DNA of 26,235 nt, from assembly GCF_000003605.2 (NCBI RefSeq), contig NW_003130357.1:218689-244923 (forward strand). The letters are read 5' to 3'. A model generated the notes under the pieces. That model was not told the DNA's origin. It was given only the letters and a program-made list of their open reading frames with translations, and ran no database searches. Both the position numbers and the translations under genes were made by a program. Positions 18,601 through 21,600 of this stretch are shown here, in pieces. Position 1 is the stretch's first letter; each line of letters opens with the position of its first letter. This DNA comes from Saccoglossus kowalevskii. Taxonomy: Eukaryota; Hemichordata; Enteropneusta; Harrimaniidae.

Positions 18601-21600
18601 CATGAATGGTCATGTCAGATATAATATAATAAAAACCAACTGCCCGCTAGTCAGACATTTTGAATTTGATCTGAAAAACAGAATGACATAATGTTCAATG
18701 TGTATACCAATTTTTAAAAAAATCTGTCAATGCACAACTGAGATCGGTTTCCGGAATGGCAGAAATGCTTTGATTTCGATGAATTTTAAGCCATCCTGAA
18801 TCAGATTGTGAAACAAATGAACACGCCTCCCAAGGTGTATGATTTGTGTGTTATTTTTTAAAGTGATCGGCCCTAGCATGTCATTTAAGAACTGTTCATG
18901 TATATGGGATATTTCCATTATTAGCCAAAAGTATGGAATTGAAAATAATCATTGAATATTAAAACACAAAAGATATTCATAACATGTACAAAGGTAAAAG
19001 GCCATACATAAATCAATGAAATCACCATTGTGAACATGTTGATATATTAGTCAAATAGATTATTATTGAAATAACATCACTTACACTTGCTTCACATAAT
19101 GATTACAAAACTACCTACCTTCTCTACTTGGCCTTGCTTTCCTGATCCAGTCAGTCAAATGCCTCACAAAATCAAAGAAGAAGTCACCCTCAGGTACACT
19201 TATAACTGTAAGGCAAGCAATCAAAATAATGGTGTATTTATATTTCACAACAACGAGTTTAAACACAGAAATGACACACAGAAATGGGCGTTACCGTATT
19301 GCAGTTTTGCAGTGCACACACTGGATCAAATATGAACATACTACATAAAGGACTTGTAAATTACACGTTACAAAATTCTTAAACACCTGTATGTTAAAAA
19401 GCTGCCTCTGCAATGGAATTAATCGACCACATGTTTAAACATTGGAGAAACCCCAAATTACCACATTCCACTGAAACTGACGACCATCAATGTGAAAAAA
19501 CATTCTTACCTTTGTCAGCTATCTTCACAAACAGACTGAAACCTTCTGATGATTTGAGTCGTAATCTCTGTGCAATGTTCATACAGAAGTCTTTAGCTCT
19601 AGTACCTGAATCCACTTCAAAAGCCTAACAATGACGAAAGATAGAGACTTTTATTTTATCATCTGATTCAAATATTCTACCGAGTCTGATGAATTCTCTC
19701 TAATGAAATGCTTGGACTATTAAACCCAACAGAGGGAGGGCGTTGGTTTCGGGGAAGGTGGTGATGGATTGGGCGAGTGTCATTCACAAAGATGCAGACA
19801 TTGTGGCCACAAGAAAGTAGAGAGACATTGAAAACTGATTTCGCATTTTTCAAAGAATCAAAATTCCTCTCATGTATAGGAAGAACTGAAAAAAAAAATT
19901 TAAGATCAACACAAACATAGTACTGTATTCATTAAACTCGACATGTTAATTTTATCTTTATCATGACATGATAAATAATTACTCAGTGCCAGCGTTCTGA
20001 TAAAAGCATGGATCAGTAAAGTACAATTACTATCATGGTATACAGGCATTGCTGTAGTTCATAAATACCACTACTGTCAATCATCATATCCATTGCTCAA
20101 ACAAACTTTTTAATGAAACAGTTTTTTGTTTTTAACATTACCTCGTCTGTGTCATCTGGGAAATAGACTTTGTGGAATATCTGCGTTGTTTTATGCTGGA
20201 TAGCTTCCACTTCCACTAGATGCGGGGGATACTTTCTTTGTCCATTCCTGATTGTTTTCTGTAATCTATGGAAACAGTCTGGAGCCAGATGATGCCGCTT
20301 TGATCGGAGAAATTTAGTGATTTCTGGAAGCAATGACTGACTGCATGCAAAAATACCAGTCACCAACCACATTAAATCCCAGCCTTTCTCTTCACTTAAC
20401 CTAATTAAGAAAAACAACAGATTTTTATTTTAGACATTTTACCATGCTGTCTTTTTTTGCTTTCAATTTTAACTGACGAAATGAATCAAATGAATGGTGA
20501 TATTTTTAATGTTACCTTATCCTGTTTCCGGTAAGCTGTTTGACGATTTGACAGTATATCTCATCACGCAATGGCTCATGCTTGAGTGCGGCCTCAAAAA
20601 TCTGATCCGACAAATCGTTACCATGACGACTTCTTTTTGATGGATAATCACCCATATACTTCATGATAGGTAAGAAACGAGTTAAAGAGAAGACACATTG
20701 TGATAATAAACTTCTGGTAATGAAAGAAATGTTACTATACAAGATTCAGCATGGTATTGTCATCATCAAAGTTTACAAATCATTTGTAATGTATTACCGT
20801 ATTTCATTCATGCACAGATGTAGCAGAACAAAATGTACATTGCAAAAAAGACAGTTAGGAATATATTGAGGTAAAAAGTCTCATGATTAACGTGCAGAAT
20901 TGACACTGTCTCAGTAATACGGTCAAACCTGTGTATTGAATCACCCATGAGAATTCATTAAAATGGTATTAATAAACAGTTGGTCTTCATATGGATGTTA
21001 AATTATTTTTTTTGATGAATCAGCAACACACATGTTTTGTTCAGAAAATGACAATTATGTTGTACCAAATACACATTTGAGTTGATCAAAATCAATTGAG
21101 TTTGACTTGATTACCGGTAAATTGGAAATTGTTTTATAAACAAATAGCTAATTATTGTTTTTGTCCCTAAACAAAGACAAAACTGCAAAAATATTGCTGA
21201 AAAGGTTGGTCACATTACCAAGGCGGTTTTTATACACAGGTTGCTCATATGCCTGCCTGCGGTCTTTCTATAACAGAGATTTGACAATCCGGGAACTCAA
21301 AGCACATGGATCAGTAAAGTACAATTACTATCATGATATACAGCATTGCTGCAGTTCATAAATACCACTACTGTCAACCATCATATCCATTGCTTTCTAA
21401 CTCGAATAAAGCGTCCCTTCTTCCCAGCTTATGAGAAGATAAAAAGTCTATTGCAGTAACCTGTCAATGTTTCCCTCTAAACACCATTGCTTCACATAAT
21501 TCTATAAAGGATATCTAAGAACGCCAAGATGGCCTCTTGCGACAATTCATCATTGCTCGTTAATTTTTTCAATAACGGCTGCCTGATTGGTTCTTTCGTG

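What the first reader, a model, noticed from the sequence alone, without database searches (positions are those of the whole stretch)
20670..21514. Minor-spliceosome (U12) AT-AC intron inside the second MyTH4 domain of myosin VIIa
Seen: minus-strand ATATCCTTT at the exon end, TTAC at the intron end, and a branch-like CTCTTTAAC with its A 12 bases from the end. With these boundaries the phase is kept and the protein reads [13 protein letters not shown], matching the family. No GT-AG pair gives an in-frame join. AT-AC introns are rare, and standard gene finders would miss or truncate this exon pair.
Basis: partly seen in the sequence, partly recalled or inferred. Interest (0 to 1): 0.75.

Follow-up and report, generated by a model that had tools for sequence, protein, structure and literature searches.

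The report
Rare-type intron in myosin VIIa
An animal myosin VIIa gene carries one intron of the rare kind removed by the cell's second, minor splicing machine, and a distant sister gene nearby keeps the same rare intron at the same spot; it is a new, well-supported example of a known kind, and not a new mechanism.

Summary
On the minus strand, 21514-20670 (845 nt) begins ATATCCTTT, ends TTAC, has CTCTTTAAC whose second A is 12 nt from the end, and joins two myosin VIIa exons in phase 1 as [13 protein letters not shown], gap-free against human MYO7A there. It scores best among the joins scanned, any dinucleotides.

One supporting claim is wrong: 20 in-frame GT-AG joins exist in the scanned range. 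All change the protein's length, score at least 26 points lower and use weak donors. Sixteen other introns of the gene are GT-AG; one junction is unresolved.

New: a paralogue on the same contig, 47-52% identical, has an AT-AC intron with the same nine-base 5' splice site at the same codon and phase, in an otherwise unalignable intron. The assembly holds U6atac, U4atac and PDCD7. U11 and U12 snRNAs were not found; the searches were weak.

Verdict: a U12-type AT-AC intron, probably older than the gene duplication; new member of a known kind. No transcripts were available; human MYO7A was not tested.

The parts
21515..21669 (-). Exon upstream of the AT-AC intron ([10 protein letters not shown]...EAILAFL plus first base of the Ala codon)
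   Evidence: Aligned to human MYO7A 5mv9; preceded by a GT-AG intron 22396..21670
20670..21514 (-). U12-type AT-AC intron, 845 nt, phase 1
   Evidence: Best of the joins scanned against human MYO7A; motifs; same intron in the paralogue
21506..21514 (-). 5' splice site ATATCCTTT
   Evidence: Sole ATATCCTT on both strands of the window; intron positions +4 to +9 pair with AAAGGA, nt 11-16 of this genome's U6atac
20681..20689 (-). Branch-point-like sequence CTCTTTAAC, 7 of 9 to the recalled consensus TTCCTTAAC, second A 12 nt from the 3' end
   Evidence: optimum distance 11-13 nt (PMC3584512, passages)
20670..20673 (-). 3' splice site TTAC
20516..20669 (-). Exon downstream (rest of the Ala codon, [14 protein letters not shown]...TGNRI)
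   Evidence: Aligned to human MYO7A; followed by GT-AG intron 20515..20401
15537..26058 (-). Myosin VIIa C-terminal half: end of MyTH4-FERM 1, SH3, MyTH4-FERM 2; 16 GT-AG introns, 1 AT-AC intron, 1 unresolved junction (about 22759-22437)
   Evidence: tblastn chain and splice search

Best explanation
The 845-nt stretch is a U12-type (minor-spliceosome) intron of the AT-AC subtype in an animal myosin VIIa gene. U11/U12 di-snRNP would recognise ATATCCTTT and the CTCTTTAAC branch region together, U6atac would replace U11 at the 5' splice site through its AAAGGA element, and the exons join in phase 1 inside an Ala codon. The intron probably predates a duplication that gave this gene and a paralogue about 78 kb away on the same contig. 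Shown: the sequence signals, the protein join, the shared intron in the paralogue, and the presence of U6atac, U4atac and PDCD7. Inferred: that the RNA is spliced this way, by this machine.
For: ATATCCTTT occurs at the exact exon end and ATATCCTT nowhere else in the window. Among joins scanned, of any dinucleotides, AT-AC 21514/20670 has the top alignment score to human MYO7A: 342, next best 338, best GT-AG 316. The branch-like site is 12 nt from the end, within the 11-13 nt optimum (PMC3584512 passages). The paralogue (47.2% identical over 180 MyTH4 positions, 51.9% over 322) has an AT-AC intron starting ATATCCTTTC at the homologous codon and phase, tied for best score, and the two introns do not otherwise align (best blastn E 0.21). 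U6atac at 136 and 112 bits, U4atac at 67 bits, PDCD7 in three pieces at 31.6-40.1 bits. The donor matches the U2 consensus at 4 of 9 positions; the 16 GT-AG introns match at 6-8.
Against: No RNA evidence. U11 and U12 snRNAs were not found: RF00548, RF00007, U12 core pattern with up to 1 and up to 3 mismatches; a positive control for the pattern search did not complete. Twenty in-frame GT-AG joins exist. The branch site matches only 7 of 9 positions, and the paralogue's branch site also 7 of 9, with its A 9 nt from the end, below the stated optimum. One ordinary GT donor pairs with U6atac more strongly in raw energy (-7.7 against -6.4 kcal/mol), though in another register.
Confidence: 0.95

Rival explanations
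1. The intron is removed by the major spliceosome through a GT-AG pair, such as 21495/20714, which inserts 21 residues ([31 protein letters not shown]).
For: The join is open and in frame and the acceptor ATTACCAG has a pyrimidine-rich run before it.
Against: Donor matches the U2 consensus at 5 of 9 against 6-8 for the 16 GT-AG introns of this gene; alignment score 307 against 342; the insert splits a block that is gap-free across human MYO7A, human MYO7B and this gene; the conserved ATATCCTTT in the paralogue would be unexplained.
Confidence: 0.03
2. A U2-type AT-AC intron, processed by the major spliceosome despite AT-AC ends.
For: AT-AC ends alone do not define U12-type introns (PMC3584512 passages).
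Against: The donor is ATATCCTTT, 4 of 9 matches to the U2 consensus; PMC7367187 Table 2 (section read) gives 0.01% of human U2-type introns as AT-AC against 26% of U12-type.
Confidence: 0.01
3. The join is right but an extra small exon or alternative 3' splice site is also used in some transcripts.
For: Not excluded: no transcripts available. Several other AC and AG sites lie in the last 100 nt.
Against: The direct join already matches the family without a gap.
Confidence: 0.05

Closest known systems
U12-type AT-AC introns (minor spliceosome)
   Same: ATATCCTTT 5' splice site, branch-like TTTAAC 12 nt from the 3' end, AC end, isolated among major introns in the gene
   Different: Branch site 7 of 9 to the recalled consensus; host gene is myosin VIIa, not among the minor-intron gene families named in the passages seen of PMC6865273
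Myosin VIIa / Usher 1B gene family (human MYO7A, MYO7B)
   Different: Whether the vertebrate genes have an intron, or a U12-type intron, at this codon was not testable here

Membership tests
U12-type (minor-spliceosome) intron, AT-AC subtype | U12 5' splice site (ATATCCTT, recalled consensus) | tested here: met
   ATATCCTTT at 21514-21506, the only ATATCCTT on both strands; same nine bases in the paralogue
U12-type (minor-spliceosome) intron, AT-AC subtype | Branch-point sequence near TTCCTTAAC (recalled consensus) | tested here: met
   CTCTTTAAC, 7 of 9; 15 of 50,666 positions have a 7-of-9 site followed by AC at this range
U12-type (minor-spliceosome) intron, AT-AC subtype | Branch A 11-13 nt from the 3' splice site (optimum) | tested here: met
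   12 nt here; 9 nt in the paralogue, shorter than the optimum; optimum from PMC3584512 passages
U12-type (minor-spliceosome) intron, AT-AC subtype | AT-AC ends with a reading frame that continues the family | tested here: met
   Top score of the joins scanned
U12-type (minor-spliceosome) intron, AT-AC subtype | No distinct polypyrimidine tract | not tested
   The end is moderately pyrimidine-rich by eye; no score was computed
U12-type (minor-spliceosome) intron, AT-AC subtype | Conserved as a minor intron in a relative | tested here: met
   AT-AC intron L015:1785-1205 at the same codon and phase in a paralogue. Other species not testable
U12-type (minor-spliceosome) intron, AT-AC subtype | Minor spliceosome present in the genome | tested here: inconclusive
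   U6atac, U4atac, PDCD7 found; U11 and U12 snRNA not found with weak searches
U12-type (minor-spliceosome) intron, AT-AC subtype | Splicing of these boundaries in RNA, by the minor spliceosome | not testable with these tools
   No transcriptome of this animal was available
Myosin VIIa | MyTH4-FERM 1, SH3, MyTH4-FERM 2 in order, closer to MYO7A than MYO7B | tested here: met
   68.7% to MYO7A and 52.2% to MYO7B over 182 positions. Motor half lies outside the window and its flanks read N

The most novel reading that the evidence does not exclude
The AT-AC intron is ancestral to animal myosin VII: it predates the split of this lineage from vertebrates, so the human MYO7A intron at the homologous codon (Ala1776 by my count, which rests on a recalled C-terminus) is, or was before conversion, a minor intron, which would tie a deafness-blindness gene to minor splicing.
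Probability: 0.3. Interest if true: 0.5.

Novelty: new member of a known kind. Interest (0 to 1): 0.33.

Why it matters
It adds a myosin to the minor-intron genes of this animal and shows the intron held at one codon in two copies that have diverged to about half identity, so it is an old and kept feature. Gene predictors that allow only GT-AG would drop or extend these exons, as the in-frame 21-residue GT-AG alternative shows. It also gives a direct test in vertebrates: the class of the intron at the homologous MYO7A codon.

Tried and rejected
Rejected: U2-type GT-AG joins (20 in frame, none length-preserving); U2-type AT-AC (donor 4 of 9); chance (and the paralogue).

Led nowhere: Rfam on the window gave 0 matches; tRNA scan 0. 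U12 snRNA by Rfam and by core pattern and U11 by Rfam gave 0; only 44 of 18,940 and 40 of 36,006 first-look candidates were scored in the two Rfam searches. Flanks L001-L005 read entirely N, so the motor half could not be read. U6atac pairing energy alone does not separate the classes. Some first splice runs failed through my own frame offsets or overlapping HSPs ('none' or no GT-AG for some junctions) and were replaced by other runs; the first solution for 25512 skipped an exon and was replaced. One search failed on a file name.

Literature: ten searches. No paper linking MYO7A to a minor intron was seen: searches returned 0; some searches returned 3, 2 and 1 papers, of which PMC9604452 and PMC10790360 were checked by passages and PMC3628982 and PMC12173457 were seen only in the listing. 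One search (U12-type intron with myosin) listed 11 papers, seen as listing only. One search showed 40 of 1,171. I recalled human variants c.5327-11A>G and c.5327-14T>G of MYO7A, which would place an exon edge at the homologous codon; searches did not find them, so they remain recall, and both could also act by creating an AG.

Full report
What is there. The window holds, on its minus strand, the C-terminal half of an animal myosin VIIa gene. The window lies at G000:C2223:218689-244923 in an unnamed 572-Mb, 4830-contig assembly. Pfam finds MyTH4, FERM_M, RA_2 and IRS/PTB domains in the second half.

The intron. The exon ending ...EAILAFL stops at 21515 and the exon beginning IMKYMGDYP starts at 20669. 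Between them, 21514..20670 (845 nt) starts ATATCCTTT and ends CTCTTTAACTCGTTTCTTAC; ATATCCTT and TCTTTAAC each occur once on both strands of the window. I scored joins with any dinucleotides in the scanned range against human MYO7A: the AT-AC join scores 342, the next 338, the best GT-AG 316. So the protein alone, without a splice-site prior, points to this boundary. The fused 190-residue peptide matches 5mv9 with E 7.1e-85, gap-free across the junction.

Twenty GT-AG joins in the scanned range are open and in frame, so the claim that none exists is wrong. Each changes the length, by -34 to +28 residues, and their donors match the U2 consensus at 3-5 of 9 positions, against 6-8 of 9 for the sixteen GT-AG introns of this gene. 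Of eighteen junctions in the chain, sixteen have a GT-AG solution within 6 points of the best join of any dinucleotides (coordinates rechecked), one is this AT-AC intron and one, between about 22759 and 22437, is unresolved.

The decisive comparison. A search of the assembly with the fused peptide gave 7 matches: four in the window (three exons of this region and one of the first MyTH4 domain) and three in a second gene at C2223:317477-318908, about 78 kb away on the same strand. That paralogue has the homologous junction. Its AT-AC join, L015:1785..1205 (581 nt; contig 318784-318204), starts ATATCCTTTC, ends TTCAC, is in phase 1 at the same codon (A|TG, Met for Ala), and ties for the best score with four joins that have no recognised splice dinucleotides; 15 GT-AG joins score lower, the best by 22 points on each reference. 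The two introns do not align (best blastn E 0.21) but share their first nine bases. Intronic bases that stay identical at one place while the rest is unalignable are what a shared U12 5' splice site predicts. The paralogue's branch-like site TTCCTTATA is 7 of 9 with its A only 9 nt from the end, weaker than ideal.

Age. The window gene is 68.7% identical to human MYO7A over 182 MyTH4 positions and only 47.2% to the paralogue over 180; the paralogue is 45.9% to human MYO7A. This fits a duplication older than the split from vertebrates, but a fast-evolving younger copy would look the same, and no tree was built.

Machinery. The assembly holds two U6atac matches, 136.2 and 111.8 bits against a cut-off of 33, one U4atac at 67 against 53 and PDCD7, which I know as the U11/U12-59K protein, in three pieces each over the cut-off. 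U6atac nt 11-16 (AAAGGA) pair with intron positions +4 to +9. Against this: U11 and U12 snRNA were not found, nor a U12 core pattern with up to 3 mismatches. The Rfam searches scored few of their candidates and rang in no control genome, and the pattern control did not complete, so absence is not shown.

Setting in print. AT-AC introns are 26% of human and 47% of fly U12-type introns (PMC7367187 Table 2, section read). Molluscs, Lingula and horseshoe crab are described as relatively minor-intron rich (PMC10639083 section 24, read). None of my ten paper searches showed a paper that links MYO7A to a minor intron; what was seen of each is in Tried and rejected. The curated intron databases themselves were not available, so I cannot say that it is unannotated.

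Noticed in passing
L015:1205-1785 (G000:C2223:318204-318784, minus strand): A second myosin VII-like MyTH4-FERM gene about 78 kb away on the same strand carries an AT-AC intron at the same codon.
   Followed up: yes
L007:1501-1631 (G000:C4512:26089-26219): A second, lower-scoring U6atac copy (111.8 bits) with a short T run and changes in a stem; possibly a pseudogene.
   Followed up: no
window 12630-12817: Tandem repeat of a 33-base unit, 5.7 copies, about 76% matches, beside the N gap 11489-12311.
   Followed up: no
window 16509-16979 (+) and 9037-9630 (+): Long plus-strand open frames of 157 and 198 aa that match no Pfam family; the first overlaps the intron and exon region of the myosin gene on the other strand.
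   Followed up: partly
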